46,192 nucleotides of DNA from a virus, in IMG/VR virus record IMGVR_UViG_3300048011_000476, positions 1-46,192 of that record, one strand, 5' to 3'. Below are positions 3,313 through 25,257 of the stretch, in pieces. Made by a program: the position numbers and the translations under genes. The notes below the pieces were generated by a model. It did not search any database. It saw only the letters and a list, made by a program, of their open reading frames with translations, and was not told the origin of the DNA. Positions within the stretch are counted from its first letter, which is position 1; every line of letters starts with the position of its first letter.

Positions 3313-3648
3313 ATGAGACCTTTATGCACTTGCGGGCAGCGTCCAGCAGCAATAAACTATAAAAAGAATAATAAAACCTATTATCGCAAACTATGCGAAA
3401 CGTGTTTACGCAACGGTGAAGGACACGGAATACCACTATGGAAACAACGTGGATACGAAAAGAAAGATGTTTGTGAAAAGTGCGGATTTAAATCAAAATA
3501 TTCGGAACAATTTAATGTATTTCATATAGATGGAGATCTACAAAACTGTCGACCAAATAACTTAAAAACTATTTGTGCTAATTGTCAGCGTATAACTCAA
3601 AAAGAAGGTATACGATGGAAGCAGGGCGATTTACGACCTGACTTTTAA
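3313..3648 (+). CDS. HNH-family endonuclease, probable homing-type
   Basis: A 111-residue protein with two zinc-knuckle-like pairs and an HNH core. CTCG (residues 4-7) and CETC (28-31) form a first Cys cluster. CEKCGF (about 54-59) and CANC (about 89-92) bracket a core with FNVFHIDGD and NCRPNNLKTIC, the His-Asp...Asn-Leu pattern of HNH nucleases. It stands alone on the plus strand between the minus-strand sheath and dNMP kinase genes, a common place for free-standing homing endonucleases in T4-like phages. It may instead be a packaging or recombination nuclease. Its last 18 bases overlap the end of the convergent kinase gene. An AAGGTGAG ribosome-binding site and a CTAAATACA late-promoter-like element precede the ATG. 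Confidence 0.75.
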   Translation: MRPLCTCGQRPAAINYKKNNKTYYRKLCETCLRNGEGHGIPLWKQRGYEKKDVCEKCGFKSKYSEQFNVFHIDGDLQNCRPNNLKTICANCQRITQKEGIRWKQGDLRPDF

Positions 3649-4140
3649 ATTTTCTATAAGTTGATATACATTAAACATCAATTGATTTAGATCACGGTTG
3701 TTGTCAATAGTAAAATCAGCCATCCATTGTTCTAGACTCATCGAGTCTTTTGACTCAGGAGGTAAATGGTCTGATCTATCAACCCAAATAGCATAATCAA
3801 ATACGCCAGTATTTTTCATAGCATAGAACTCGCGCTTGTTGCGCAATCCACAGTAAATATCGTGTTCTTTGAATATTTCTCTGCCTAATGTAGCAGCATC
3901 TTTTTCATTATAATCACAGATAGCATTGTACCACTCCGCACGATGATTGTGTCTATCTTCATAACACTCTTCTTCTGAAGTATAGCCATACTTGTCTTTC
4001 AACATGTCGTAGATAAAGAGCTTTGAACAAAATTTACTGCTGCTTTCAAAACTGAAATTATAATTTTTTTCTAGTATTTCGCACACAGTATCTTTACCAT
4101 GTCTGCCATGACCGATAACTAATAGTTTTAGATTGCTCAT
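3631..4140 (-). CDS. 1: Deoxynucleoside monophosphate kinase-like protein (T4 gp1-like)
   Basis: A P-loop kinase of 169 residues. The N-terminal strand and Walker A loop read LLVIGHGRHGKDTVCEIL (residues 6-23), the GxxxxGKDT form found in phage dNMP kinases, which phosphorylate deoxynucleotides for phage DNA synthesis. Downstream, residues such as TLGREIFKEHDIYCGLRNKREF and VDRSDHLP resemble the LID and base-recognition parts of T4 gp1-type kinases, and a DFTIDNN segment near the C-terminus fits too. It is shorter than T4 gp1 (241 residues). ATG 4140 has an AGGAG site. It sits alone among structural genes and converges on the HNH gene. Kinase fold is well supported; substrate range is inferred. 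Confidence 0.7.
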   Translation of the reverse strand: MSNLKLLVIGHGRHGKDTVCEILEKNYNFSFESSSKFCSKLFIYDMLKDKYGYTSEEECYEDRHNHRAEWYNAICDYNEKDAATLGREIFKEHDIYCGLRNKREFYAMKNTGVFDYAIWVDRSDHLPPESKDSMSLEQWMADFTIDNNRDLNQLMFNVYQLIENLKVRS

Positions 4141-4192: not shown

Positions 4193-4435
4193 TTAATCGT
4201 ATCCTAATACTGCAATTTTGTCAATATCTTCGTTATACATTTCAGCTTCTCTTGCTGCCCATGCAGCAGGAAAATCTCCGTCATGAACACAATTTTCGTG
4301 ATTGCCCCAGATGCGTTTCATATAGCTATCGTATATGCCTTCTACATCTTTGTCGGACCATGATTGGGGAATTAGTGAACCTTTTACTATCCAGTAAAAG
4401 CGGTTGGCTTCTTTTCTTACAAATGGACTGCACAC
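4193..4435 (-). CDS. Small protein of unknown function
   Basis: An 80-residue protein starting with GTG at 4435, supported by GGAG eight bases upstream. It is rich in aromatic residues (five Trp: FYWIVKG, SWSD, IWGNH, AAWAARE) and acidic toward the C-terminus, with no signal peptide or membrane segment. I do not recognise a family. Upstream (4460-4466) is a weak late-promoter-like GTAAATAC element. It is the first gene downstream of the remnant copy of the gp13 3' end, so before the methyltransferase insertion it would have followed gp13 directly. Confidence 0.6.
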   Translation of the reverse strand: MCSPFVRKEANRFYWIVKGSLIPQSWSDKDVEGIYDSYMKRIWGNHENCVHDGDFPAAWAAREAEMYNEDIDKIAVLGYD

Positions 4436-4604: not shown

Positions 4605-5261
4605 TCACATTATAGTTGAATTACTAGAATTTGTCAAATGATTTTTTATTACAAAAAAGTTTGCAGCTTTAGAAATTTCTTTAAATTTATTGTTTTTTCT
4701 TGCATAACCATCGACTGCTTTGATTATTCCAGGAAATTTAATAGAATAATCGTCGCCGCATACGATCTGTACATTTGAAAATAATTTTAGCCACTTTTTC
4801 ATGACTTCAAAAGTGTGTCTATCATCAAGGTAAACCAAATCCCAGTTGTTTGAAAATTCGTCGCTTGCAATCCAATCATCCGAATCTAACTTCCATATTT
4901 TTTTTATAATTTTGTTGTTTGGATGTTGAGAGATAAGTTGTTTAAAAATTTCAAGCTGATTTGTATCACTTTTTGCCCATCTTTTTATAGATTTAGCCAT
5001 CATATTGTTGTTACCTTTATATTTTTTATAAAAAGAATGATAACACCAATGAGATGTTAGATTAAAATTATCAAGCACATAATACATCGAACTAGATGGA
5101 AGAGCGTCTAACCATGCCCATGTGCTGCGTCCCCATCCACAACCTATTTCTAAAATTCTAGGATTTTTTGGTAAATCTTGTACTAAGCTTTTATATAATT
5201 TATGCTGTGGGTAAAAAGTCCAACCGGGTATGTCTAGAGAATGTTTGATCTTTAAATTCAT
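4605..5261 (-). CDS. Class I SAM-dependent methyltransferase, accessory cargo gene
   Basis: A 218-residue protein from ATG 5261 (MNLKIKHSLDIPGW). Motif I is ILEIGCGWGRSTWAW, the ExGxGxG SAM-binding loop; the following strand ends in YYVLDNF. WDLVYLDDRHTFEVMKKWL and IVCGDDY are motif IV/V-like and resemble Methyltransf_24 small-molecule or sugar O-methyltransferases. The substrate is unknown. ATG 5261 lies four bases past the gp13 stop with only a weak ribosome-binding site, suggesting translational coupling. A longer frame to a TTG at 5321 would run inside gp13 and is unlikely. Flanking gp13 3'-end copies mark it as inserted cargo. It might modify surface sugars together with the heptose and carbamoyl enzymes in this window, but that is inference. 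Confidence 0.78.
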   Translation of the reverse strand: MNLKIKHSLDIPGWTFYPQHKLYKSLVQDLPKNPRILEIGCGWGRSTWAWLDALPSSSMYYVLDNFNLTSHWCYHSFYKKYKGNNNMMAKSIKRWAKSDTNQLEIFKQLISQHPNNKIIKKIWKLDSDDWIASDEFSNNWDLVYLDDRHTFEVMKKWLKLFSNVQIVCGDDYSIKFPGIIKAVDGYARKNNKFKEISKAANFFVIKNHLTNSSNSTIM

Positions 5262-5265
5262 ATTT

Positions 5266-6021
5266 TCAGCCGATTGTAAAGCCGTAGCCAGTGCCGCCTG
5301 GAACTGCCATCGAAACTTCAACTTCTAGTTTGTCCATTTCAGCTTGTGCTTCAGCTTTTAAGCTATCGCCGTTTAGCGTTGATCCGCCTTGGGGTCCGGC
5401 GATAGTAGCAAACTTACTACGTGCTTCGCCTAACATATATTTACAACTAGCAAGTGTGTAATCTTTAATCCATTGTGATGCTAGGTAGTCGTTTAATAGT
5501 TCACTATCTGGACGGTAATTATAACAATAAAGCAATATGTCTTCTTCAGCTCTAGGACGTTGTAGTAAAGTTAATTTTTTAGTTGGAGAATTCCATTTAA
5601 ATTCAATAAAACTACCAAACATTCTGCCTACTAGTTCTTGATGTTGAGAAAACATATCATATGTTGCCAGTCCACCTAGTTTAGATCCTGACAACAAATA
5701 TGTATTTGTATATGCCATGTTAAACGGTTCGAATAAACTGCCGCCACCGCCTCCGCCAGTGCGCGAGCCTATACTTCTACGGAATAATTTGCGTACTTCA
5801 ATAACTTCATTTGGCAAAACATACTCATTTTGATCAATAACAGTAGTAAGAAACATATAAGATTCTTCGACACTATTGTCTGACCGTTGTCTAAAACGAC
5901 TCAATGCTTTGTTTAGTGCTGTTTGATAGTGTATAGGATCAAGTTCAACATCCACCATGCCACCGCCGAGGAATGTGTTAACGTAATCGTATACTTCTTG
6001 TTTTTGTGTCGCTAGTGTCAT
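5266..6021 (-). CDS. 13: Neck protein (T4 gp13-like)
   Basis: A 251-residue head-completion/neck protein, which in T4 binds the portal side of the filled head together with gp14 before tail joining. The start is ATG 6021 (MTLATQKQEVYDYVNTFLGG) with AGGAG eight bases upstream; a longer frame upstream lacks such a site. Family-like features are the acidic segment VDVELDPIHYQTALNKAL, ESYMFLTTVIDQNEYVLP, and the C-terminal WIKDYTLASCKYMLGEARSK followed by a helical EAQAEMDKLE tail and GGTGYGFTIG. A run of six glycines near residue 105 is a flexible loop. It is transcribed opposite to gp14 and gp15, unlike T4. Its 3' end is duplicated at 4503-4602. Confidence 0.82.
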   Translation of the reverse strand: MTLATQKQEVYDYVNTFLGGGMVDVELDPIHYQTALNKALSRFRQRSDNSVEESYMFLTTVIDQNEYVLPNEVIEVRKLFRRSIGSRTGGGGGGSLFEPFNMAYTNTYLLSGSKLGGLATYDMFSQHQELVGRMFGSFIEFKWNSPTKKLTLLQRPRAEEDILLYCYNYRPDSELLNDYLASQWIKDYTLASCKYMLGEARSKFATIAGPQGGSTLNGDSLKAEAQAEMDKLEVEVSMAVPGGTGYGFTIG

Positions 6022-6038
6022 ATGAAGTTCTCCTATAG

Positions 6039-6046
6039 TATTTATC
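6039..6046 (-). promoter_or_regulatory. Late promoter for gp13
   Basis: Leftward sequence GATAAATACTATAGGAG: a one-mismatch T4 late octamer followed by the AGGAG ribosome-binding site of gp13. Confidence 0.6.
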
Positions 6047-6051
6047 CTGAG

Positions 6052-6059
6052 CATAAATA
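6052..6059 (+). promoter_or_regulatory. Late promoter for the gp14-gp15-heptose transcription unit
   Basis: CATAAATA on the plus strand, one base from TATAAATA, 25 bases before the gp14 start. With the facing element at 6039-6046 it makes a compact divergent late promoter pair. Confidence 0.55.
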
Positions 6060-6083
6060 TGTATAACAAATAGGAGAAAAGCT

Positions 6084-7220
6084 ATTCCACGTCTTAGCCT
6101 ATATAAACCAGAACGCGGCAATGATTATCATTTCTTGGACAAACAGATCCAAGAAATGTTTACCATCGGCGGCACAGATATACTTATACATAAGTTTCTT
6201 GGAGCAGAAAATCCTATTGAAGGCGAAGGCACTGCTGACCAGCCTACTTATGATGCGGTAAAAGAAACTAACATACAAGACTTACTGTTCTTAGAAAATA
6301 GAGACAGAAAGTATGATCCAGATGTTTATAATATTCGAGGAATTTATAATGTACAAGACATCGACTTTGATCTAAGTGCATTTGGACTATTTTTAAGTAA
6401 TGATACACTTATGTTAACTATTCATATTAATAGCAGTGTTAAAACATTAGGTAGAAAGATTATAAGTGGTGATGTAATTGAGCTGCCGCACTTAAAAGAC
6501 GAGTATGCTCTTAACGATTATAGTGTTGCACTTAAAAGATTTTATGTTGTAGAAGATGTTAATCGTGCAGCAGAAGGATTTAGTCAAACTTGGTATCCGC
6601 ATCTGTACCGCTTAAAATTAAAGCAAATATACGATGGCCAGGAATACAACGAAATATTAGATTTGCCTGCAGAAGAGGGTAGTGACAATACACTACGTGA
6701 TTTGCTTAGTACATACGAAAAAGAAATGCAAATTTCAAATGCAGTAGTTGCACAAGCCGAAGCAGATGCTCCTAAGAGTGGGTATGACATTAGTCATTAT
6801 TATACAGTAAGTACAAATGACGACGGTAGTATCGATTTAGCAACAGCAGATAACGGAGAATACGATGAAACCGCTCCTAGTAAGCCCGATAGGGCAGGCT
6901 ATACAGGGTACTTAGTTGGTACCGGCGATGCTGCTCCAAATGGCGTGCCGTTTGGATTTGGTATAAGTTTTCCTGTTGACAATGTAGAAGGTGACTACTT
7001 TTTACGTACAGATTTTTTACCAAATAGAATGTTTAGATATGACGGAACACGATGGATTAAGGTCAATGACGATATCAGAATGACGCTAAGTAATACACTT
7101 GAAAGACAAACATACAAAACAACGTTTATTAATAATACAAAGTCAAGTGAAATTGACGGTGAAACAGTTGAAGAAAGACAAAGCCTTTCTAAAGCACTAC
7201 GTCCAAAGGCAGATAACTAA
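6084..7220 (+). CDS. 14: Neck protein (T4 gp14-like), apparent ATT start
   Basis: Neck/head-completion protein that partners gp13. Characteristic family sequence is GDVIELPHLKDEYALNDYSV, ALKRFYVVEDVNRAAEGFS and TWYPHLYRLKLKQIYDGQEY, followed by a variable loop with GVPFGFGISFP and a basic C-terminus. The open frame begins after TAA at 6054 and contains no ATG before residue 30. Conserved-looking coding sequence PRLSLYKPERGNDYHFLDKQ starts right after ATT at 6084, which sits seven bases after AGGAG (6072-6076). I place the start there. TTG 6135 would remove about 17 conserved residues. The sequence GAAAAGCTATTCC looks like GAAAATGGCTATTCC with TG missing, so an ancestral ATG may have been lost or mis-assembled. 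The stop overlaps the gp15 start (TAATG). Confidence 0.82.
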   Translation: MPRLSLYKPERGNDYHFLDKQIQEMFTIGGTDILIHKFLGAENPIEGEGTADQPTYDAVKETNIQDLLFLENRDRKYDPDVYNIRGIYNVQDIDFDLSAFGLFLSNDTLMLTIHINSSVKTLGRKIISGDVIELPHLKDEYALNDYSVALKRFYVVEDVNRAAEGFSQTWYPHLYRLKLKQIYDGQEYNEILDLPAEEGSDNTLRDLLSTYEKEMQISNAVVAQAEADAPKSGYDISHYYTVSTNDDGSIDLATADNGEYDETAPSKPDRAGYTGYLVGTGDAAPNGVPFGFGISFPVDNVEGDYFLRTDFLPNRMFRYDGTRWIKVNDDIRMTLSNTLERQTYKTTFINNTKSSEIDGETVEERQSLSKALRPKADN

Positions 7221-8632
7221 TGCAACATTTTTACGACGGACAAATAAGAAGATATCTTACACAAATGATGCGCATACTAGCAAACTTTCCTGTACAAGAC
7301 GGTAAAGGTGTGCAAAAGGATGTGCCTGTGACATACGGCGATTTAACACGCCAAGTTGCTAATATTATTAGAGAAAACAGTGAAAACAAATTACCTAGTG
7401 CGCCGCGTATTGCTGTGTACTTAACTGGACTAGAACTAGACAAAGATAGACTAACAGATTCAACATATACACGCAAAACTAATATTAGAGAACGTGCATA
7501 TGATAGCGAAGCAGGAGAATACTTAAACACACAAGGTAAAAATTATACAGTTGAACGTTTAATACCAACACCATATATGATGCGCATTAATGCAGACATC
7601 TGGACAAGCAATACAGATCAAAAATTACAATTGCTAGAACAAATATTAGTATTGTTTAATCCTAGCTTAGAAATGCAAACTACTGACAACTTTATTGACT
7701 GGACTAGTATTAGTGTTGTTAATTTAGAAAATGTACAATGGTCAAATAGAAGTGTTCCAGTTGGTGTAGACAGTGAAATAGATATTTGTACTATGACATT
7801 TAGTATTCCTATCTATATTAGTCCGCCTACTAAAGTGCGCAAAATGGGAGTAATTACTAATATTATTACAAGCATGTTTGACGAAACACTGGGTGATATT
7901 GAAAGTGGAGTTAGTGCTCCTATACTTAATGCGTACGACGATTCACCAAGAGCAGGTATTACAGAAAACGAATTTGGTCGAAAAGCTATATCTGACACTG
8001 CTGCTGAAATGGCAAATGTTAACTATAATACATACGGTGCATTTGTAGACGGCAATAACGCACAGTTATATTCAAACGGAATTGTAGGTAATAAAAATTG
8101 GAGAGAAATCTTTGAAGCATTACCAGGTACATATGCTGCTGATGTAAGTCGCATATTTTTTACTAGCCAAGACAATTCAAAAACAATAACTGGCACATTT
8201 ACTCTAAGTCCGTTTGATGAAACTAAAATATTAATCAATTGGGATACTGATAGTTTTCCAAGCGACACTGTAATTGCAGGACGTACAAGTATAGATTATA
8301 TTATTGACCCTACAAACTATAATCCTACACCAATTAAAACAGCTGGCGTTAGATTGCTGTTGTTAAACGATGTTGGCAATGCAGATGCTACAGAATCGCC
8401 AGTAGCTTGGCAAAATTCTGACACCAGTGCAACAGTTGCGAGTGCAAACGATATTATCGAATGGGATGGCACAAGATGGAATATTGTATTTGACGCAAGT
8501 GCTGCTACTGATGTCACATACACTACTAATTTAAATACAAGCGTACAGTATCGATTTAACAACAGCGAATGGTTATTGAGTATTGACGGCGATTACCCTG
8601 TAGGAACATGGCGAGTTGAACTAGCAGGCTAA
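7220..8632 (+). CDS. 15: Tail completion / sheath terminator protein (T4 gp15-like)
   Basis: A 470-residue protein whose first 220 residues match the T4 gp15 fold, the hexameric cap at the head-proximal end of the tail. Visible features are FYDGQIRRYLTQMMRILANF at the start, VPVTYGDLTRQVANII, and YTVERLIPTPYMMRINADIW followed by LQLLEQILVLFNPSLEMQ. The domain ends near TFSIPIYISPPTKVRKMGVI. T4 gp15 is 272 residues; the remaining 220 here form a beta-rich extension with EWDGTRWNIVFDAS and ending in WRVELAG. The start codon shares its A with the gp14 stop (TAATG), so the two are translationally coupled. Its terminal codons recur 44 bases downstream. Confidence 0.85.
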   Translation: MQHFYDGQIRRYLTQMMRILANFPVQDGKGVQKDVPVTYGDLTRQVANIIRENSENKLPSAPRIAVYLTGLELDKDRLTDSTYTRKTNIRERAYDSEAGEYLNTQGKNYTVERLIPTPYMMRINADIWTSNTDQKLQLLEQILVLFNPSLEMQTTDNFIDWTSISVVNLENVQWSNRSVPVGVDSEIDICTMTFSIPIYISPPTKVRKMGVITNIITSMFDETLGDIESGVSAPILNAYDDSPRAGITENEFGRKAISDTAAEMANVNYNTYGAFVDGNNAQLYSNGIVGNKNWREIFEALPGTYAADVSRIFFTSQDNSKTITGTFTLSPFDETKILINWDTDSFPSDTVIAGRTSIDYIIDPTNYNPTPIKTAGVRLLLLNDVGNADATESPVAWQNSDTSATVASANDIIEWDGTRWNIVFDASAATDVTYTTNLNTSVQYRFNNSEWLLSIDGDYPVGTWRVELAG

Positions 8633-8678
8633 CTTCTTGTCCAGTTGAGACACAGCAAGTTGAACTAGCAGGCTAACT
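8614..8678 (+). repeat. Direct repeat of the gp15 3' end (21 bp, two copies)
   Basis: The 21 bases at 8614-8634, which cover the last gp15 codons VELAG and stop, recur exactly at 8658-8678, just before the Nudix start. Similarity extends weakly upstream. The second copy reads PVETQQVELAG then stop in its own frame, so it resembles the tail of another gp15 allele. The two copies are not in the same frame. Confidence 0.85.
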
Positions 8679-8684
8679 ATATGT

Positions 8685-9125
8685 ATGAACAAGTGTATTA
8701 CATGTAGTGGTGCGTTATTTTACACACTCAATACAAATAGATTTTTATTCTTACACAGAGCAAGCGGCAAACGTAATAATCTGTGGGGCCTAGTTGGCGG
8801 AACTAACGAAGGCATTGAAACTCCATTTGAAGGTTTAACTAGAGAAATCGAAGAAGAGATTGGGTTTTTGCCTAATATTAAAAAGACACTTCCCTTAGAA
8901 AGCTTTATTTCTCTTGATAGTAAATTTCATTTTCACACGTATCTATGTGTTGTAGAAGAAGAATTTATACCACAATTAAACAACGAACACGACGGCTATG
9001 CTTGGTGTAGTTTTACTAAATGGCCAAAGCCCTTACATCACGGATTACGTAACACCCTTCAAAGCAAAGTTAATCTAACTAAGTTAGATACTGTATTTCA
9101 AACTATTAATTTACTTGACAAATAA
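8685..9125 (+). CDS. Nudix hydrolase
   Basis: A 146-residue Nudix enzyme, which cleaves nucleoside diphosphate-X compounds. The complete Nudix box occupies residues 45-67: GTNEGIE, then REIEEEIGF, fitting Gx5Ex7REUxEExGU with all metal-binding glutamates present. The preceding FLHRASGKRNNLWGLVGG segment resembles GDP-mannose hydrolase/NTP pyrophosphohydrolase members. It follows gp15 and precedes HldE by 25 bases, so it may act on nucleotide sugars or clean up nucleotides during ADP-heptose synthesis; it could equally hydrolyse dNTP damage products or RNA caps. ATG 8685 has no clear ribosome-binding site; the duplicated gp15 tail lies directly upstream. Confidence 0.88.
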   Translation: MNKCITCSGALFYTLNTNRFLFLHRASGKRNNLWGLVGGTNEGIETPFEGLTREIEEEIGFLPNIKKTLPLESFISLDSKFHFHTYLCVVEEEFIPQLNNEHDGYAWCSFTKWPKPLHHGLRNTLQSKVNLTKLDTVFQTINLLDK

Positions 9126-9149
9126 TTCAAAAGATAGTATAATAAGAAC

Positions 9150-10289
9150 ATGAAAGTATTAGTTCTCGGCGACATAATAATCGACAAATACATATATGGC
9201 ACAAGCACTCGGATAAGTCCTGAGGCTCCTGTCCCTGTAATTACATACAAAAAAGAAGTCGAAACACTGGGTGGAGCTGGACTAGTATACGAAAACTTAA
9301 AAGGCCTTGGTGTTGACGTTGATCTCTACGACACAGGCGAAGAATCTAGTATTAAAACTCGTGTAATTTGTGATGGTCATTATATAACACGCATAGATGC
9401 TGACAAATTTGCAAACGGCACTGATGTATTAGACAAAATCATTAATAATGATTTCTCACAATACGAATATGTTGTATTAAGTGACTATAACAAAGGTGTT
9501 CTAGACGAATCTCTAAGAATTATTCAACATCTTAACAAGTTTGGTTGTAAAATTATTGTTGATCCTAAACGTCCTGCACATTTTTATAATGGCGCTTGGC
9601 TTGTAAAACCCAACTACAAAGAGTTTGACGACTTTGGATTTACTAACTGGCAAGATAATATCATTACAACTAATGCAGGTGATAATGTTGTTGCTAGTAT
9701 AGACAATGTAGTGTACGATATACCAGTTGAGGCTGTAGAAGTAAACGATGTCACAGGTGCTGGTGATTGTTTCTTAGCAGCATTTGTATATGGACTTACA
9801 AAAGAATACACTTATGAAAAATGTTTACAACTAGCAGTAAGGGGTTCTACCAAAGCAGTTACGCATGTAGGTACATACATGCTTGCTGTAAGCGACTTAG
9901 AAGAACGAGTAGTGTTTACTAACGGAGTGTTTGATATACTGCACAAGGGGCATTTTGAGCTCTTATCGGAAGCAAAATCGCTTGGTGAAAAACTGATTGT
10001 AGGCATCAATAGCGATGCAAGTGTCAAACGTCTTAAAGGCGAAACACGCCCTATTAATAATGTTATGAAGCGTATAAGTCAATTAGAAATATTACCGTGG
10101 GTAGATAAAGTTGTTGTATTTGACGACGATACTCCATACAAATTAATCAAAGAACTAAAGCCGCATGTAATTGTAAAAGGCGGCGATTACACCGTAGAAC
10201 AAGTTGTAGGACATGATCTAGCACCTGTACACCTTGTATCTACAGTTCAAGGTTATTCAACTACAAATATTATAGAGGCAAGCAAATGA
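9150..10289 (+). CDS. hldE: Bifunctional heptose-7-phosphate kinase / heptose-1-phosphate adenylyltransferase (HldE-like)
   Basis: Catalyses two steps of ADP-heptose synthesis. The N-terminal PfkB kinase domain (residues 1-250) shows VLVLGDIIIDKYIYG, TRISPEAPVPVI, LGGAGLV, VLSDYNKGVL, IIVDPKRP and the catalytic DVTGAGDCFLAAF (Asp base). The C-terminal nucleotidyltransferase domain starts at FTNGVFDILHKGH (HxGH motif near residue 267), then VGINSDASVKRLKG, HVIVKGGDY and STTNIIE. Order and motifs match E. coli HldE, but length is 379 versus 477: a stretch of the kinase lid and the interdomain linker are shortened. It overlaps hldD by four bases. A TATAAT-like element lies at 9136-9143. GmhA, which would supply its substrate, is not in the window. 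Confidence 0.93.
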   Translation: MKVLVLGDIIIDKYIYGTSTRISPEAPVPVITYKKEVETLGGAGLVYENLKGLGVDVDLYDTGEESSIKTRVICDGHYITRIDADKFANGTDVLDKIINNDFSQYEYVVLSDYNKGVLDESLRIIQHLNKFGCKIIVDPKRPAHFYNGAWLVKPNYKEFDDFGFTNWQDNIITTNAGDNVVASIDNVVYDIPVEAVEVNDVTGAGDCFLAAFVYGLTKEYTYEKCLQLAVRGSTKAVTHVGTYMLAVSDLEERVVFTNGVFDILHKGHFELLSEAKSLGEKLIVGINSDASVKRLKGETRPINNVMKRISQLEILPWVDKVVVFDDDTPYKLIKELKPHVIVKGGDYTVEQVVGHDLAPVHLVSTVQGYSTTNIIEASK

Positions 10290-11113
10290 AAATATTAGTC
10301 ACTGGACACAAAGGATTTATAGGTTCAAATATTGCATTGTATTTGCAATCGCAAGGACACGAAGTAGAAGGATGGGAATGGATGCCCGGCATTATTCCTA
10401 GTACAGAAGGGTACGATTGGTGTATACACACCGGTGCCATTAGTTCAACTACATACACCGACGTTAATCAAATACTAGAACAAAACTTTGAGTTTACTGT
10501 AAGGCTTGCACAAGTATGCGAAAACTTTGGCACTAATTTTCAATATGCATCTAGTGCAAGTGTATACGGTCCTACAACACACTTTACAGAAGATGGTAAC
10601 TTATTACCCCAGTCTCCTTATGCATGGTCAAAGTATTTGTTTGATAGATTCTTAGGACAGTTTCAAGACGAATTTCAAATCAAAATTCAAGGATTTAGAT
10701 ATTTTAATGTGTACGGTCAGTACGGAGAAGATCACAAAGGTGATCAAGCATCACCGTATACAAAGTTTACTAAACAAGCAAAAGAAAAGGGATACATTGA
10801 ACTATTTAAAAACAGTGAAAATTATTCTCGAGATTTTGTATGCGTAGAAGACATTTGTCGGTTGCACGAAAAAATGTTTGATGTGGACCAATCAGGTATT
10901 TTTAATGTAGGAACAGGTCGTGCAGTGAGTTTTAATACTGTAGCAAACTCAATTGCTGCAAAACACGGCGCTAGAATTGAACTAATTGACATGCCAGATA
11001 AACTAAAAAGTCAATATCAAGAATATACATGTGCTAATCTAGACAAGCTAAATTCAGTAGTAGATATGCAATGGACAAACATAGAGGATTATATCAATGC
11101 AGGAACCAACTAG
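10286..11113 (+). CDS. hldD: ADP-L-glycero-D-manno-heptose 6-epimerase (HldD-like)
   Basis: Short-chain dehydrogenase/reductase epimerase converting ADP-D,D-heptose to the L,D form. The NAD(P)-binding motif is GHKGFIGSN (residues 7-15); the catalytic pair is YAWSK (Tyr-x-x-x-Lys, about 112-116) with the preceding YASSASVYG. HldD-specific segments are CIHTGAISSTTYTDV, GFRYFNVYGQYGEDHKGDQA, LFKNSENYSRDFVCVEDI, SGIFNVGTGRAVSFN and MPDKLKSQYQEYT, all closely matching E. coli HldD. It is 275 residues against 310 in E. coli, with a trimmed N-terminal half. It overlaps hldE by 4 bases and the cupin gene by 17 bases, so translation is coupled along the operon. Confidence 0.92.
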   Translation: MKILVTGHKGFIGSNIALYLQSQGHEVEGWEWMPGIIPSTEGYDWCIHTGAISSTTYTDVNQILEQNFEFTVRLAQVCENFGTNFQYASSASVYGPTTHFTEDGNLLPQSPYAWSKYLFDRFLGQFQDEFQIKIQGFRYFNVYGQYGEDHKGDQASPYTKFTKQAKEKGYIELFKNSENYSRDFVCVEDICRLHEKMFDVDQSGIFNVGTGRAVSFNTVANSIAAKHGARIELIDMPDKLKSQYQEYTCANLDKLNSVVDMQWTNIEDYINAGTN

Positions 11114-11489
11114 ATTACAAGGTGTAGTACAAAAAGGATGGGGATACGAATTAATTTGGGCAACTAACGACAAGTACTGTGGGAAAATTATGTTTTTTGA
11201 AAAAGAAGGTGCACAATTTAGTATGCATTTTCATAAAGAAAAAGATGAAACGTGGTTTGTAAATACAGGTAAATTTAAAGTTCAGTGGATAGACACTAAT
11301 ACTGCGGCTTTATATGAAAAAGAACTAAGCGAAGGCGATGTTTGGCATAATCCACCATTGCAGCCGCATAGATTGATATGTTTGCAAGGAAGCTCAAGCA
11401 TCACAGAAGTTAGTACAGCAGACAGTGTCGAAGATAATTACAGAGTTGCTCCAGGAGATAGTCAACGACAAAAGGCCGAAAATGGCTAA
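11097..11489 (+). CDS. Cupin-fold protein, sugar-isomerase-like
   Basis: A 130-residue single-domain cupin. WGYELIWATND opens the barrel; the metal-site pattern is FSMHFHKEKDETWFV (HxHx(4)E) and PPLQPHRLICL (distal His). The end TEVSTADSVEDNYRVAPGDS is typical of cupins related to the C-terminal domain of mannose-6-phosphate isomerases found in polysaccharide gene clusters. Its place between hldD and gmhB suggests a sugar-phosphate or nucleotide-sugar function, possibly an isomerase or epimerase that alters the heptose; the exact reaction cannot be read. ATG 11097 lies inside the end of hldD and its own stop overlaps the gmhB start by eight bases. Confidence 0.82.
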   Translation: MQEPTRLQGVVQKGWGYELIWATNDKYCGKIMFFEKEGAQFSMHFHKEKDETWFVNTGKFKVQWIDTNTAALYEKELSEGDVWHNPPLQPHRLICLQGSSSITEVSTADSVEDNYRVAPGDSQRQKAENG

Positions 11490-12108
11490 AAATGTATTAG
11501 ACAATGCAGTTGTTGAACCATCTGCGAACTTTGAAATAAACAACAGTAAACGTTATAATAAACCAGTAGTAGGCATCGATCGGGATGGTGTACTTAATGT
11601 TGATCTTGGAACATATGTCACCGACCCAATTAACTTTGATCCTATTCCTGGTAGCTTAGAAGCTGTTGCACTGTTGCGATCTAAAGGTCATAAAATAGCA
11701 GTAATTACCAACCAAGGCGGTATTGAGAAGGGATTAATGACACCTGCAGATGTTGACAGAGTGCATAACAAAATGTTAGAACTTTTAGGCCAAGCAGGTT
11801 GTCCTAGTATAGATGCAATATATTACAGTGCAAGCAGTCGAAAGAATGACATGTATGCAAAACCAAATACAGGCATGTTTAAAAAATGCGAGAAAGAACA
11901 CCCTTATATTAAGTTTTCAAAAGGATTTTTTGTTGGTGACAAAATTAGTGACCTAAAGGCTGCATATAAAATGGGTGCTCGGCCAATACTAGTAAGAACA
12001 GGATACGGTCTTGAAACTGAAAAACAACTGAACAAACACGCATACAAACAAATTAAAAAACAAACTCTAGTGTTTGATAATCTTTGGGAGTTTGCACAGA
12101 CAATTTAA
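11482..12108 (+). CDS. gmhB: Heptose 1,7-bisphosphate 7-phosphatase (GmhB-like HAD)
   Basis: HAD-superfamily phosphatase that removes the 7-phosphate between the two HldE steps. Motif I is GIDRDGVLN (Asp nucleophile and acid/base), motif II VITNQGGI, then KPNTGMF and motif III/IV FVGDKISDLKAA, closing with ARPILVRTGYG. The start at ATG 11482 overlaps the cupin stop; a GTG at 11425 lies deep inside the cupin gene and is less likely. The zinc-binding Cys/His loop of E. coli GmhB is missing: this region reads YYSASSRKNDMYAKP without cysteines. It could therefore be a related HAD of the same subfamily (HisB-N type), but the operon context supports heptose. Its TAA shares bases with the stop of the convergent fibre gene (TTAA). 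Confidence 0.88.
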   Translation: MAKNVLDNAVVEPSANFEINNSKRYNKPVVGIDRDGVLNVDLGTYVTDPINFDPIPGSLEAVALLRSKGHKIAVITNQGGIEKGLMTPADVDRVHNKMLELLGQAGCPSIDAIYYSASSRKNDMYAKPNTGMFKKCEKEHPYIKFSKGFFVGDKISDLKAAYKMGARPILVRTGYGLETEKQLNKHAYKQIKKQTLVFDNLWEFAQTI

Positions 12109-19337: not shown

Positions 19338-20048
19338 ATGAAAAAAGGCAAACTTTGGATATTTGGTGATAGTTATGGTACATTTCATAAAGAAATTGAC
19401 AAGCTAAAAGATTGGCATTGGATGTGGAGTCTTACTGAAAAATTAGGACATGAAAGTTTTTATAATATTTGTCAAGACGGTGTTGCCAACGAGTGGATAT
19501 ATTATCAATTTATAGACAAATCTGCAGAAATAAATCCAGAAACAGATACTATTATTTTTATTACTACTCAAATAAACCGTCAATGGTTTTTTCCAGATAA
19601 CGAAGGAGTAGGAAATATTCTAATGGGACCGCTTGATGCGTATGTAACAAAGGATCAATCTAGAGCTATCGATTTATATAACAAACATTTAACCGATAAC
19701 CCTCAAAATCAAATCAGGTTCCAATGGTTGCTGTATGCTTTAAACTTTTTAAAAGAAACAAATAATCTTAATTTATTTATTTTACCTGGATTCGAAAACG
19801 AAGGATTTTTCCTCAATAAAGATGTTACTATACAAAGCAGTTTGTTAACACCATGCATTAACGAAGTAAAAGGTTTAAGTATGGAATCTTGGCTACGCTG
19901 GATGGGGAGAAATAACGGAATAGATACTCGAGAAGGACACCTATCAGAGTGTAATCATCCTATACTAGCAGAAAAACTATTTCAAAGTATTGTACATAAA
20001 CAGACGTTAGATTTAAGATCCGGGTTTAATCAAGAATTTTTAAGTTAA
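19338..20048 (+). CDS. SGNH/GDSL-like hydrolase
   Basis: A 236-residue protein with the block I motif WIFGDSYGTFH (residues 8-18, nucleophile Ser in GDS), a DGVANEW segment in the position of block II, TTQINRQWFF around block III, and HLSECNHPILAEKL near the C-terminus, which fits block V with catalytic His and Glu in place of the usual Asp. SGNH enzymes remove acyl, commonly acetyl, groups from sugars. It is the only plus-strand gene in a long minus-strand block and faces the NPP-motif methyltransferase, sharing the TTAA palindrome as overlapping stops. A role in trimming host polysaccharide or editing a phage glycan is plausible but inferred. No signal peptide. Confidence 0.7.
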   Translation: MKKGKLWIFGDSYGTFHKEIDKLKDWHWMWSLTEKLGHESFYNICQDGVANEWIYYQFIDKSAEINPETDTIIFITTQINRQWFFPDNEGVGNILMGPLDAYVTKDQSRAIDLYNKHLTDNPQNQIRFQWLLYALNFLKETNNLNLFILPGFENEGFFLNKDVTIQSSLLTPCINEVKGLSMESWLRWMGRNNGIDTREGHLSECNHPILAEKLFQSIVHKQTLDLRSGFNQEFLS

Positions 20049-20719
20049 GATTTTGTAATATGTATGTACCAAATATCGTTAGGATACAAAACACTTAAAC
20101 AAATATTTTTTATTTGTAGGCCGCTATCATTAATCATTTTTGTAAAGGTTTCTGGACTACTGCCTTTTGTATTTTCCATTAAGATTATGTCAGCATCATC
20201 AGTTATATAATCTCCAACAGTTTCAAAAAAATCTCGGTGTATATTCCAATTCTCGTCTTTATATTTTCGATGTTCGTTTGGATCAACATTTCCATAAGTG
20301 GGCGCGAAGTTGAAATGAGGTGGATTACCTATTATCAAATCGTATTTTACATCTTTAGGATGATTCTTAAAATTATTAGATAAAATAAAATTTACATTAT
20401 TGTTAAGATTATTTTTATCGATTGTTTTTTCTACTACAACTTTGTTAGGTTGATGTATATCTAGTAAAGTTAAATTTTCAGTAAATCCTTGACTAAGTGT
20501 TCCAAATCCTAAATAGCCTGGGCCTGAACACCACTCCAAACAATGCCTGTACTTTTTTCCTTTAGAAAAATAATTAATGCAGGATACGGCATCAGCAGCT
20601 GTCTGATAACCGTATCCATCTAATTTGTTTGATGAGTAGACTAAAAATTTATCTACTCTAACTTCAACAATTTCTGTATTAAGCAATTTTCCAATTTCCG
20701 ACTGTAAGAAGTTTGCCAT
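20045..20719 (-). CDS. Class I methyltransferase with NPP motif
   Basis: About 224 residues from ATG 20719 (MANFLQSEIGKLLNTEIVEV). Motif I is HCLEWCSGPGYLGFGTL and motif IV is YDLIIGNPPHFNFAP. The NPP[Y/F/H] signature belongs to amino-group methyltransferases such as PrmC/HemK, RlmF-type and TrmN6 enzymes that modify glutamine amides or base nitrogens. That suggests a protein, RNA or DNA amine target rather than a sugar hydroxyl. An alternative TTG start at 20743 lies further inside the upstream gene. The chosen start overlaps the carbamoyltransferase end by about 40 bases, so it is translated as the last gene of the glycosyl/carbamoyl cassette. Substrate unknown. Confidence 0.72.
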   Translation of the reverse strand: MANFLQSEIGKLLNTEIVEVRVDKFLVYSSNKLDGYGYQTAADAVSCINYFSKGKKYRHCLEWCSGPGYLGFGTLSQGFTENLTLLDIHQPNKVVVEKTIDKNNLNNNVNFILSNNFKNHPKDVKYDLIIGNPPHFNFAPTYGNVDPNEHRKYKDENWNIHRDFFETVGDYITDDADIILMENTKGSSPETFTKMINDSGLQIKNICLSVLYPNDIWYIHITKS

Positions 20720-22478
20720 ATTCTGGCAAATATAAATATTCAATCTTACTTTCGCTTAACGTCCAAAGTGCATCTTCTAGCGTTTCTACTAACGGTTCTC
20801 CGCCTAAATTAAACGATGTATTAAAGATAATTGGTATTCCAGTCTTTTCTTTAAATGCCTTGATTACACGGTAGTACAGAGGATTTTCTTCTTCAGTTAC
20901 TGTCTGTATACGACATGTTCCATCAACATGAATAATACTTGGAATTTTTTCTTCGATGCCAGGTTGACAGTTAACAGCATACATCATGTGCGGGCTATCT
21001 TCCATGCCACGTAAATCAAACCATTCATGTGCGTCTTCTGCAAGGATTGATCCTGCAAACGGCCGGAAGTATTCACGATGTTTAATTTCATTAACAAAGT
21101 CTTTTCCATCTTCAAAAGTTGGATCAAACATCAAGCTACGATTTCCTAATGCACGTGGACCGTTTTCTGCACGGCCTTGGAACATTGCTACGATATTTTT
21201 GTTAGTCATTAATTCAACTACATCGTCATCTGTTGCATCACTAACAATAGCATTATATTCTTCAGCTACCTTATTAATATTGTCGTCACTGTAATTGTAC
21301 TGTGGTCCGAGGTAAATTTCTCTCGGGCGTTTCATACTCGATTGACTAATAGAATGATAATACAGCAAGGCTGCTCCTATAGCTGTGCCACCATCATTAG
21401 AAATAGGTTCTACATATAGTTCGATTCCTTCTTCATTTAGTCTATCGAGGTACCAGTAATTTGCAACACAGTTTAATCCATACCCACCAGATAACACTAC
21501 TTTATTCTTATCTGCCATTTTCGCAGCAGATAATATTAAATCTAATGCTTGCTCTTGAGTTTGTGTTTGACAAGCATAAGCTAGATCTCTACGATTTTGA
21601 TACTCTGTCCATGAATAGTCGTCACCGCTCGGGCTATCGACCAATTCTTCGTAATTAAGATGATTAACAATAGCCCCGTTTGGATATGTAGGTATTATAA
21701 GACTTCTGTCAGAGACAGGAATTCTAGTATTAGTAGTAAAGAGCTTTGGAATTTTTTCGTTAGGCTTTCCGTAAGGAAATAATCCCATAGTCTTTCCGGC
21801 TTCTATTTCTTGAAAGCCACAGTACTTGGTAACTGCTTCGTAGACTTTTGTAATTCCTGCATGTCCAGAAACTACAGAAGTAAATGTATTTCCTGGCTCG
21901 CCGAAATTAGAACCATCTGTATCTGAGTTAATGACTGTAACTATAGGATCTCGGCAACCAAAATGTTTATACAATGTTTTAATATTATCAGGGTAAGAAC
22001 AGTCAAAAATACTTTCTACTTCCCACAGTATAACATTGCCTTCATGTGTTTGACCTGATTGTGCAGATCCAGCACCGTCTATCACTACTGCTACAGCATC
22101 ATCAAAACCAGAACGATAGAATGCACATGCAGCATGAACTTTGTGGTGCTGGCTCGAAATATCAATAACTTGAGGATGATTATACAAATCAGCTTTTCTA
22201 TCAATTAGTCCCATTTTTCGAGCTAAACCGGCATACAAATTGTCACCGGTGTATTCAATCTTAGGAGCGTCTTTTAGATCAGTAGTATGACAAATAATAA
22301 GAGCATCAATCTTGTCAGTATATTCTTTTACCTTTATCATAGTTGCCAACGGACCACCGTCGTATTTGTGGCGTGTAAATCGTTCTTCTTCACTAGCAAA
22401 TATAATATTGCCATCTTTCAGCAAACATACACCTGCATTATGACCTCTTGAAATACCTAAAATATATCCTGATGACAT
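20679..22478 (-). CDS. O-carbamoyltransferase, NodU/CmcH family
   Basis: A full-length 599-residue enzyme transferring a carbamoyl group from carbamoyl phosphate, via a carbamoyl-adenylate, to a hydroxyl, usually of a sugar. The N-terminal ASKHA-like domain has ILGISRGHNAGVCLLKDG, SEEERFTRHKYDGG, SSQHHKVHAACAFY (metal-binding His) and AVVIDGAGS; KVVLSGGYGLNCVANYW and EPISNDGGTAIGAAL follow. The C-terminal domain has GRAENGPRALGNRSLMFDP, HREYFRPFAGSIL and FNTSFNLGGEPLVETLEDA. All family motifs are intact. AGGAG of its ribosome-binding site lies within the last codons of the GT9 gene, which stops two bases upstream, indicating tight coupling. Known relatives carbamoylate Nod factors, antibiotics and heptose of Pseudomonas LPS. 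Confidence 0.93.
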   Translation of the reverse strand: MSSGYILGISRGHNAGVCLLKDGNIIFASEEERFTRHKYDGGPLATMIKVKEYTDKIDALIICHTTDLKDAPKIEYTGDNLYAGLARKMGLIDRKADLYNHPQVIDISSQHHKVHAACAFYRSGFDDAVAVVIDGAGSAQSGQTHEGNVILWEVESIFDCSYPDNIKTLYKHFGCRDPIVTVINSDTDGSNFGEPGNTFTSVVSGHAGITKVYEAVTKYCGFQEIEAGKTMGLFPYGKPNEKIPKLFTTNTRIPVSDRSLIIPTYPNGAIVNHLNYEELVDSPSGDDYSWTEYQNRRDLAYACQTQTQEQALDLILSAAKMADKNKVVLSGGYGLNCVANYWYLDRLNEEGIELYVEPISNDGGTAIGAALLYYHSISQSSMKRPREIYLGPQYNYSDDNINKVAEEYNAIVSDATDDDVVELMTNKNIVAMFQGRAENGPRALGNRSLMFDPTFEDGKDFVNEIKHREYFRPFAGSILAEDAHEWFDLRGMEDSPHMMYAVNCQPGIEEKIPSIIHVDGTCRIQTVTEEENPLYYRVIKAFKEKTGIPIIFNTSFNLGGEPLVETLEDALWTLSESKIEYLYLPEYGKLLTVGNWKIA

Positions 22479-22479
22479 A

Positions 22480-23487
22480 CTATTTTTCTCCTATTACTTT
22501 TTTATTTGGTTTATTAAACAACACATTTGATGCGTGTTTTGCTAAAGGAATCTGAGAGGACTGACTAGTAGGTTTACCTAGTTTATTATTAATACTTTTC
22601 ATAATCTTTTTATAATTAACCTCGCTTAATATCATGTTATCTTCATTATGACGTTCTGCTGCCGGATCAGTTGTGACTCTATACGGAACGTATACTCTAT
22701 TTTCTTTCCCACTATCAATAATAGTAAAATCGTTATTGTTTGGATAACTTATATTTTCTGGAAAAGTCGACCCAATTACTACAGTTGCCGGCTTTCCTAA
22801 TGCATGTGCATAGTGCTGGCCCATGCTATCGCATCCTAAGAAATAATCAGCAGCATTAACAATGCCCATCCATTGCAATAAATTAGCTCCTTCTGGTATT
22901 GCAGCACCCATTTGTCTATCTGTTGGAATTTTAAGATTTGTCATTAATATAACAGCATAATCTTTTGACAGTTCATCTACAATTTCGAAGACATCTTTTA
23001 GTTCAAAACTTCTGCCACTTTCGTCAAATACGAAATTCCCATCAATTTTAACTCCGCTTCCAAATGGTTGAAAAACAATTACCTTTTCCTTTTTCATTTG
23101 ATGCTTAACTTGATTAACTAAATTATGTCCATAAATTTGATCTGCTTTTCCGAGATCTAAATTTATTTCTTTAATATCTACAGTTTCATCGACACCATTA
23201 ATTAACATGTCAAATGCTTGTATTAAGTTAACCCGTTGATTGAAATATGCGTTAAGTCTGTATGGTTCAGGACTAATAATCTCTCTATCTTTTAATACTG
23301 TTTGAAACAGTTCTTTGCTTCCAACTGGCCATACATTGTTTCGCAACTTAGAAGACAAAAATAATTCATGCCATGCTTCTGATACTATTACAACATCTGG
23401 ATCGGTGTGTTCTTTGTAATACTCTAATGCAGGTATGCTGCATAAAACTCGACCTGCGCCGCCGTTTATAAAAAATGCCTTCTTCAT
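22480..23487 (-). CDS. Glycosyltransferase family 9 / heptosyltransferase-like protein
   Basis: A 335-residue protein starting at ATG 23487 (GGGAG five bases upstream; a TTG at 23499 would include the ribosome-binding site itself). Features fit the two-Rossmann GT-B fold of GT9: N-terminal FFINGGAGRVLCSIPALEYY (like the GDVLLTTPAL loop), KVIVFQPFGSGVKIDG at the second domain, then IVNAADYFLGCDSMGQHYAH and ALGKPATVVIGSTFPEN, corresponding to the GT9 nucleotide-sugar site DSGPMHLAAALGKP. GT9 enzymes use ADP-heptose to build LPS cores or, in the bacterial autotransporter family, to heptosylate protein serines. The phage makes ADP-heptose enzymes elsewhere in this window. It is the upstream partner of the carbamoyltransferase. 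Confidence 0.8.
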   Translation of the reverse strand: MKKAFFINGGAGRVLCSIPALEYYKEHTDPDVVIVSEAWHELFLSSKLRNNVWPVGSKELFQTVLKDREIISPEPYRLNAYFNQRVNLIQAFDMLINGVDETVDIKEINLDLGKADQIYGHNLVNQVKHQMKKEKVIVFQPFGSGVKIDGNFVFDESGRSFELKDVFEIVDELSKDYAVILMTNLKIPTDRQMGAAIPEGANLLQWMGIVNAADYFLGCDSMGQHYAHALGKPATVVIGSTFPENISYPNNNDFTIIDSGKENRVYVPYRVTTDPAAERHNEDNMILSEVNYKKIMKSINNKLGKPTSQSSQIPLAKHASNVLFNKPNKKVIGEK

Positions 23488-23554
23488 TTGTACTCCCAAG
23501 TAAACATTGTGTTAGTATATATGCTATTTTTTACTATTAAATTTTATTTCTGGT

Positions 23555-24195: not shown

Positions 24196-25257
24196 TTAAT
24201 CACATTCCCAACTTACACATACCATTCCCATGCGCCCGGAATCACCTTGACAAGCGTTGCCGCCGCCACAACTATATGTGTGATACCCGCCAGCACCCGG
24301 TATTCTAAGAAATCCTTGTGCACCGCTCTTGTAACAGCCGTAGCAACCCTCATTAATATCTACACCTGAATAAATTGCTTCACACACACAGTTTTCAAAC
24401 CCAAACACTGGAGTCGAAAAGCCCGTACTAAGGTGTAAACAGTTACCAGTGCCGCCTGTACAGTGTGCAGGCCATAAGCCATTCAAACCATATTTAGTAA
24501 TAGTTCTACTATCGTTTGCTCCATTATTCAAATGGAATGTTGTTCTACTTGCATATGCATGACACGCACGTGATTCGTCCCAATAATCGTCATAGCAGAA
24601 GTTCCAGCCGCTACATCTATTTGCACTACATGTGCCGCCTTGAAGGTCTGGATCTGGTATACGATCTCCGCAACCACTATTGGAATTTAAATCATCATTC
24701 CAGTAACAGAAACAGCTAATTCCACTGTCTGCACATGCGTTTATGCCACTTGTTGAGTTAAACCATGTTGGATTGCCACATATTCCTGGAGTAGTTTGTT
24801 CTCCCCAGCAGCAATATGCACACCCTGCACAAAAACAATATGTTTCGCCTTGATTAACGCAAAACTGTAGTACCATATATGCGCCACTTGGGCCAAAAGG
24901 TGATCCGCCGCAGCAGCAGTTGCCACTTGTTCCGCCGCCTGGACCCCACATCTGAACTTGAATTTTCGATACACCTGAACAAATAGTAGTGTTGCAGTTG
25001 TTACCGCAACGCCAACAGCTGCCGCAAACTTTAAATCCGTTAGATTGCGCCGGGCAAACTAGTGGACAAAGATTTTCAACCCAATCAGCAACAATTGCAG
25101 GATATGCTTTAAACTCTCCAGCACCTGCGCCTTCTTGCACATACGGATACCCTGCAGGAGCAGGCTTACTGTAATCAAGCGATGTGCCGCCTTCGCCGCC
25201 GCCAGCATTTAGTCTTGTATTCTCTTTAATTGCTGCATATAGTATTACGTCACTCAT
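24196..25257 (-). CDS. Cysteine/glycine-rich adhesin-like virion protein A
   Basis: A 353-residue protein with 35 cysteines (10 %) and many glycines. After a plain N-terminus (MSDVILYAAIKENTRLNAGG) come clusters such as CGSCWRCGNNC, NCCCGGSPFGPSGAY, YCFCAGCAYCCWG and VCEAIYSG, ending GRMGMVCVSWECD. The pattern IQVQMWGPGGG ... GSPxGxxGAY ... PGAGGYHTY is a glycine-rich adhesin scaffold shared with the protein at 25922-26911. It probably sits at a fibre tip and binds the host receptor, stabilised by many disulphides or bound metal. There is no signal peptide, so oxidation would occur after lysis. Receptor unknown. Confidence 0.7.
   Translation of the reverse strand: MSDVILYAAIKENTRLNAGGGEGGTSLDYSKPAPAGYPYVQEGAGAGEFKAYPAIVADWVENLCPLVCPAQSNGFKVCGSCWRCGNNCNTTICSGVSKIQVQMWGPGGGTSGNCCCGGSPFGPSGAYMVLQFCVNQGETYCFCAGCAYCCWGEQTTPGICGNPTWFNSTSGINACADSGISCFCYWNDDLNSNSGCGDRIPDPDLQGGTCSANRCSGWNFCYDDYWDESRACHAYASRTTFHLNNGANDSRTITKYGLNGLWPAHCTGGTGNCLHLSTGFSTPVFGFENCVCEAIYSGVDINEGCYGCYKSGAQGFLRIPGAGGYHTYSCGGGNACQGDSGRMGMVCVSWECD

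What the first reader, a model, noticed from the sequence alone, without database searches (positions are those of the whole stretch)
9150..12108. Phage-encoded ADP-heptose operon (HldE, HldD, cupin, GmhB) without GmhA
Four overlapping genes encode the kinase, adenylyltransferase, phosphatase and epimerase of ADP-L-glycero-D-manno-heptose synthesis. The first enzyme, the sedoheptulose-7-phosphate isomerase GmhA, is absent and would have to come from the host or lie elsewhere. The operon directly follows neck gene gp15 and a Nudix hydrolase on a late transcript, so the product is made while virions assemble. That timing favours a role in virion or host-surface glycosylation over early takeover. 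Enzyme families are read from motifs; the role is inference.
Basis: partly seen in the sequence, partly recalled or inferred. Interest (0 to 1): 0.75.

Follow-up and report, generated by a model that had tools for sequence, protein, structure and literature searches.

The report
Phage heptose-making operon with cupin isomerase
A marine giant phage carries its own small set of genes for making an activated seven-carbon sugar, and a small cupin protein sits where the bacterial pathway has its first enzyme, so the phage may have its own way to start this sugar and attach it to a surface.

Summary
The operon is real and correctly placed: HldE-like kinase/nucleotidyltransferase (9150-10289), HldD-like epimerase (10286-11113), cupin (11097-11489) and GmhB-like phosphatase (probable start 11482, to 12108). 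Catalytic motifs are kept. GmhA is absent from the window, from a collinear 335-kb relative, and from 8 of 9 complete cassette-bearing cyanophage genomes tested.

It is in 151 of 160 related viral loci (the rest are mostly truncated) and never lies beside GmhA. It also sits between kinase and guanylyltransferase in GDP-heptose cassettes of other cyanophages; the two pathways share only the isomerase and phosphatase steps. Profiles place it near D-lyxose and mannose-phosphate isomerases. I propose a non-homologous sedoheptulose-7-phosphate isomerase (inferred, untested).

The window also holds an unannotated GT9 heptosyltransferase-like protein (22480-23499) beside an O-carbamoyltransferase (20679-22478), which would complete a make-and-attach set.

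The 'late transcript' argument is not supported: the operon has its own consensus sigma-70 promoter (9115-9143), 6 nt from the ATG, conserved in 62 of 66 relatives; similar leaderless promoters in the relative precede replicative helicase and primase-like genes. Virion glycosylation stays plausible on other grounds.

The parts
9115..9143 (+). sigma-70 consensus promoter TTGACA-N17-TATAAT; -10 box ends 6 nt before the HldE ATG (leaderless transcript predicted)
   Evidence: conserved in position and spacing in 62 of 66 distinct relatives, 43 of them 12/12
9150..10289 (+). HldE-like bifunctional heptose-7-phosphate kinase / heptose-1-phosphate nucleotidyltransferase (379 aa)
   Evidence: PF00294, PF01467; NF008454 E 7e-83, below its cut-off; GAGD and HxGH in 87 of 87 relatives
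10286..11113 (+). HldD-like NDP-heptose 6-epimerase (275 aa)
   Evidence: TIGR02197 E 1.4e-68; PDB HldD 1eq2 E 1.4e-42; catalytic Tyr/Lys and second Lys kept
11097..11489 (+). KGWGxE/YCGK cupin, proposed sedoheptulose-7-phosphate isomerase
   Evidence: HxHxxKxE in 77 of 77 distinct viral members; Lyx_isomer 28/42 and MannoseP_isomer 17/42 members; model pLDDT 92
11482..12108 (+). GmhB-like HAD phosphatase (208 aa from ATG 11482; the longest frame starts at GTG 11425)
   Evidence: PRK08942 E 1e-37; 4pnh E 1.3e-22; zinc loop lost; start site from sequence
20679..22478 (-). Nol/TobZ-type O-carbamoyltransferase
   Evidence: PF16861 1.8e-58, PF02543 5e-25; phrog_1601; adjacent to or within the heptose cassette in P-SSM2, S-SSM7, S-CAM1
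22480..23499 (-). phrog_8954 protein ('unknown function'), GT9 ADP-heptosyltransferase-like
   Evidence: AF2 model; best PDB folds are GT9, WaaC, WaaF, TibC; PF01075 only E 0.044
8685..9125 (+). Nudix hydrolase upstream; the operon promoter overlaps its 3' end
   Evidence: PF00293
7220..8632 (+). gp15 tail sheath stabiliser (neighbour, structural)
   Evidence: PF16724; closest isolates are jumbo phages such as PA5oct

Best explanation
A phage-borne, near self-contained pathway from sedoheptulose 7-phosphate (S7P) to nucleotide-activated heptose. The cupin does the first step (S7P to D-glycero-D-manno-heptose 7-phosphate) in place of GmhA; HldE phosphorylates C1 and transfers the nucleotide; GmhB removes the 7-phosphate; HldD epimerises C6. 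A phage GT9-like transferase then attaches the heptose and the carbamoyltransferase caps it, probably on a phage tail or head protein or on a surface glycan. Shown: gene identity, motifs, conserved linkage, promoter sequence, absence of GmhA. Inferred: the cupin's reaction, nucleotide and sugar specificity, and the acceptor.
For: Cupin in 151 of 160 loci, the others nearly all truncated; no GmhA in any of them or in the 335-kb collinear contig. GmhA absent from 8 of 9 complete cassette-bearing cyanophage genomes. Cupin between an HddA kinase (E 7e-83) and an HddC-like transferase in Bellamy, SynMITS9220M01 and AG-345-E15; in SynMITS9220M01 the second kinase adjoins a true SIS isomerase instead. 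Cellular cluster HldE-C, cupin, kinase, HldD, HAD (L194); none of 20 GmhA neighbourhoods holds the cupin. Isomerase-type profiles. GT9 fold.
Against: The cupin fold is functionally broad; its best structural hits include oxygenases and decarboxylases. All NCBIfam scores lie below equivalog cut-offs. Half of the loci were collected with the cupin itself, and phage loci are not independent. Some cellular cupins stand alone (L164, L165), and the L194 genome has GmhA elsewhere. Some loci lack an adjacent phosphatase. GT9 evidence is structural only (TM about 0.5; no sequence hit in the PDB).
Confidence: 0.55

Rival explanations
1. The host supplies D-glycero-D-manno-heptose 7-phosphate through its own GmhA; the cupin acts later or elsewhere, for example as an epimerase, a modifier or a regulator of the heptose branch.
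For: GmhA-like genes occur in 33 of 151 genomes of the family of a Prochlorococcus genome and in several genomes that carry the cupin; cupins have many activities.
Against: 78% of those host-family genomes show no GmhA at E 1e-10; the cupin is more constant in the cassette than the phosphatase and follows both ADP- and GDP-type cassettes.
Confidence: 0.28
2. The enzymes make a different activated sugar; the compact HldE and zinc-less GmhB mark a changed specificity.
For: HldE is about 100 residues shorter, HldD lacks about 28 residues in its N-terminal nucleotide-binding part, and GmhB lacks the zinc loop in 52 of 52 relatives; scores are below equivalog cut-offs.
Against: All best matches point to the same pathway, catalytic residues are kept, and a GT9 heptosyltransferase-like fold is linked.
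Confidence: 0.13
3. The carbamoyltransferase and GT9-like protein modify phage DNA, as with 5-carbamoyloxymethylcytosine (PMC8670742), and the heptose cassette is a separate matter.
For: Phage carbamoyltransferases of this family can act on hydroxymethylcytosine (PMC8670742).
Against: That paper links DNA modification to a neighbouring thymidylate synthase homologue; none was seen among the window genes scanned. In cyanophages the gene sits with heptose genes and the GT9-like protein.
Confidence: 0.04

Closest known systems
[quoted passage not shown]
   Same: Three of the four enzymes, same motifs, operon-like overlap
   Different: No GmhA, a cupin instead; compact HldE; GmhB without zinc loop; own leaderless-type sigma-70 promoter; phage-borne beside tail genes
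Cyanophage 'LPS' genes T4-GC 304/305/307/308 (P-SSM2, S-SM2, S-SSM7; PMC3037559)
   Same: HldE-C, HldE-N, cupin and HldD co-occur; carbamoyltransferase and phrog_8954 nearby in P-SSM2 and S-SSM7
   Different: Split HldE and a mini-HAD phosphatase; function left open in 2010 ('functional' or 'stuffer DNA'); HldE only 35-37% identical
GDP-heptose pathway (GmhA, HddA, GmhB, HddC), as in Bellamy and SynMITS9220M01
   Same: The cupin sits between kinase and nucleotidyltransferase
   Different: Other kinase and nucleotidyltransferase families; GDP-type rather than ADP-type
Type II mannose-6-phosphate isomerase and D-lyxose isomerase cupins
   Same: Metal-binding cupin motif; profile similarity over most of the domain
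   Different: Own KGWGxE/YCGK signature; substrate unknown
TibC/WaaC/WaaF GT9 heptosyltransferases
   Same: Overall fold of the phrog_8954 model
   Different: Sequence similarity below cut-offs; acceptor unknown

Membership tests
HldE | PfkB kinase with GAGD plus HxGH nucleotidyltransferase in one chain | tested here: met
HldE | NCBIfam equivalog cut-off (521 bits) | tested here: not met
   278.8 bits
HldE | Activity on D,D-heptose 7-phosphate with ATP | not testable with these tools
   needs an assay
HldD | SDR with catalytic Tyr/Lys and second catalytic Lys | tested here: met
   alignment with E. coli HldD
HldD | TIGR02197 cut-off (274.6 bits) | tested here: not met
   231.4 bits, E 1.4e-68
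GmhB | HAD-IIIA DxDG motif | tested here: met
GmhB | CxH...CxC zinc loop of the E. coli enzyme | tested here: not met
   (0 of 52)
GmhA (SIS isomerase) | SIS-domain gene in the phage | tested here: not met
S7P isomerase by function | S7P to heptose 7-phosphate conversion by the cupin | not testable with these tools
   context only:
Cupin sugar isomerases (PF07385/PF01050) | Over the Pfam gathering score | tested here: not met
   window protein 16.3 bits vs 20.8 for PF07385; 28 of 42 members match at E<=0.01
GT9 heptosyltransferase | GT9 fold | tested here: met
   TM about 0.5, model pLDDT 78.5
GT9 heptosyltransferase | Sequence profile over cut-off | tested here: not met
   PF01075 13.5 bits vs 22; no PDB sequence hit
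Nol/TobZ O-carbamoyltransferase | Carbam_trans_N and _C domains over cut-off | tested here: met

The most novel reading that the evidence does not exclude
The KGWGxE cupin is a new, non-homologous class of sedoheptulose-7-phosphate isomerase that marine phages use to start both ADP- and GDP-heptose synthesis, in hosts that often lack GmhA and, where analysed, have no heptose in their LPS, in order to heptosylate and carbamoylate their own virions.
Probability: 0.35. Interest if true: 0.85.

Novelty: new variant of a known kind. Interest (0 to 1): 0.7.

Why it matters
If true, it fills the missing first step of a sugar pathway seen in many marine T4-like and jumbo phages, adds a second protein fold for that step, gives a family of 'unknown function' a role as heptosyltransferase, and makes the 2010 question whether cyanophage 'LPS' genes are functional directly testable. 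It also shows that two public labels in these clusters (phosphoheptose isomerase, cysteine dioxygenase) are misleading.

Tried and rejected
Reading the cyanophage gene labelled 'phosphoheptose isomerase' (phrog_1238, T4-GC 306) as GmhA: rejected, it has HAD motifs and 12 of 12 members match TIGR01689 capsule phosphatase. RmlC-type 3,5-epimerase for the cupin: no such Pfam match among 42 members. Nucleotide-level neighbours among isolate phages: none. Surveys of Bacteroidota and Campylobacterota for more cellular cupins: only the seed genomes matched. Papers holding cupin, sedoheptulose, heptose and isomerase together: none in the library.

Full report
Observation. Best family matches are HldE (E 7e-83), ADP-glyceromanno-heptose 6-epimerase (1.4e-68) and heptose bisphosphate phosphatase (1e-37), all below the curated equivalog cut-offs. 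The third gene is a cupin with no assigned function. Upstream are gp15 and a Nudix hydrolase. Motif checks against E. coli enzymes and relatives show kept catalytic residues (GAGD and HxGH in 87 of 87 distinct HldE; DRDG in 52 of 52 GmhB), a shortened kinase, a shortened HldD N-terminal part, and loss of the GmhB zinc loop in 52 of 52. The GmhB start is probably ATG 11482, which overlaps the cupin stop.

What the phage is. The window is a whole IMG/VR record of 46 kb, a fragment. gp15 is closest to jumbo phages such as PA5oct and Atu_ph07, at 31-34% identity. A 335-kb contig in a Neomarinimicrobiota MAG is collinear with most of the window and carries the same cassette, the GT9-like protein and the carbamoyltransferase, with no GmhA. 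Binning into that MAG is not host evidence; the host is unknown.

The cupin. Of 160 loci (156 IMG/VR and 4 cyanophage), 151 have the cupin. Of the 9 without it, 8 end inside or shortly after HldE or HldD; the ninth (L047) has 1.2 kb after HldE with neither HldD nor cupin, while its relatives L046 and L048 carry both further downstream. No locus has a GmhA by three different queries. The phosphatase is variable: GmhB, mini-HAD, or none nearby. About half of the loci were found with the cupin as query, so the unbiased part is the HldE-collected half, where the same holds. In isolate phages, all 29 marine records with a full-length HldE match are also in the cupin list, and the remaining cupin records carry either HldE pieces (S-SM2) or an HddA/HddC GDP-heptose cassette (Bellamy, SynMITS9220M01, AG-345-E15). 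ADP- and GDP-heptose routes share only the isomerase and phosphatase steps (established pathway knowledge). SynMITS9220M01 has two kinase modules: one next to the cupin, the other next to a genuine SIS isomerase. Caulobacter phage Cr30 also pairs its kinase with an SIS isomerase. Complete genomes of P-SSM2, S-SSM7, S-T4, P-TIM68, S-SM2, Bellamy, Sf-CH8 and S-CAM1 have no GmhA. In cells the cupin is rare but appears inside heptose-type clusters, most clearly L194 (HldE-C, cupin, kinase, HldD, mini-HAD) and L167; none of these local clusters has GmhA, and none of 20 GmhA neighbourhoods has the cupin. Against a simple swap, the genome of L194 has GmhA elsewhere, and some cellular cupins stand alone.

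Cupin family signals. Of 42 members, 28 match Pfam D-lyxose isomerase and 17 mannose-6-phosphate isomerase at E<=0.01; the profile finds D-lyxose ketol-isomerases in the PDB over most of the domain. The AF2 model is confident (pLDDT 92), but Foldseek hits are a mixture of cupins, among them D-lyxose isomerases 7nzp and 3kmh and an archaeal phosphomannose isomerase. So the fold allows, but does not prove, ketose-aldose isomerisation.

Attachment. phrog_8954 ('unknown function', 22480-23499) gives an AF2 model whose best PDB matches are GT9 proteins, among them the heptosyltransferases WaaC (with an ADP-heptose analogue), WaaF and TibC; by sequence the link is weak. TibC heptosylates a protein (own knowledge). 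The gene lies next to a Nol-type carbamoyltransferase, and both lie at the heptose cassette in P-SSM2 and S-SSM7, near tail fibre or neck genes. Marine Synechococcus WH8102 and CC9311 LPS contain no heptose (PMC4515613), yet phages recorded as infecting WH8102 carry the cassette. This argues against feeding the host's normal LPS core and for a virion or a new surface target. The acceptor is unknown.

Timing. A 12/12 sigma-70 promoter with 17-nt spacer ends 6 nt before the HldE ATG. Among 66 distinct relatives with the same Nudix-HldE junction, 43 keep 12/12, 15 keep 11/12 and 4 keep 10/12, with the same spacing while the spacer sequence changes; shuffled upstream regions reach 11/12 in about 0.5 of 66. 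Part of the -35 box codes for the Nudix C-terminus, so its conservation is partly coding, and the relatives are not independent. In the 335-kb contig the few other promoters this close to an ATG include those of a DnaB-like helicase and a Toprim primase-like protein. T4-late-type TATAAATA is at chance level in the window and absent from 6000-9150. The operon is therefore more likely early, middle or constitutive under host-type polymerase; read-through from late genes is not excluded.

Prior knowledge. PMC3037559 noted in 2010 that T4-GC 304, 305, 307 and 308 (here recognised as HldE-C, HldE-N, the cupin and HldD) co-occur, and left open whether they work. I found no paper in the library assigning the cupin or phrog_8954 a role; most subscription papers are not covered.

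Verdict. A known kind of pathway on a phage, with a well-supported but untested proposal for its missing first enzyme, a newly recognised candidate attachment enzyme, and a corrected view of its expression.

Noticed in passing
L001:10113-10457 and homologues (T4-GC 306, phrog_1238): The RefSeq/PHROG label 'phosphoheptose isomerase' is wrong: these are mini-HAD phosphatases (TIGR01689 in 12 of 12).
   Followed up: yes
phrog_7851 (window 11097-11489): The label 'cysteine dioxygenase' for this cupin family has no support in the Pfam or NCBIfam matches seen here.
   Followed up: yes
L240 (G196:C57:302219-303016): A nucleotidyltransferase fused to a second, mannose-phosphate-isomerase-like cupin in the 335-kb relative (by eye).
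   Followed up: no
window 24196-25257 and 25922-26911 (-): Two related glycine- and cysteine-rich proteins (phrog_35878) beside tail fibre genes; possible surface proteins and candidate heptose acceptors.
   Followed up: no
window 19338-20048 (+): Protein with a GDS-type motif (KLWIFGDSYG), SGNH-hydrolase-like by eye; similar genes lie next to the cupin or carbamoyltransferase in L015, L064 and the 335-kb contig.
   Followed up: no
window 20045-20743 (-): Methyltransferase-like protein (PF05175) whose homologue lies in the S-SSM7 heptose cluster.
   Followed up: partly
window 4609-4637 (-): A second perfect TTGACA-N17-TATAAT promoter, pointing to the small genes at 4193-4435 and 3631-4140.
   Followed up: no
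L164 and L165: Stand-alone cupins 60-63% identical to the phage one, in a Rickettsiales MAG and in Marinoscillum pacificum, in a shared neighbourhood with B12-binding/radical-SAM-like genes (by eye).
   Followed up: no
L036 and L040: The HldE-HldD-cupin core in another context, followed by radical-SAM/SPASM-like genes (by eye) rather than structural genes.
   Followed up: no
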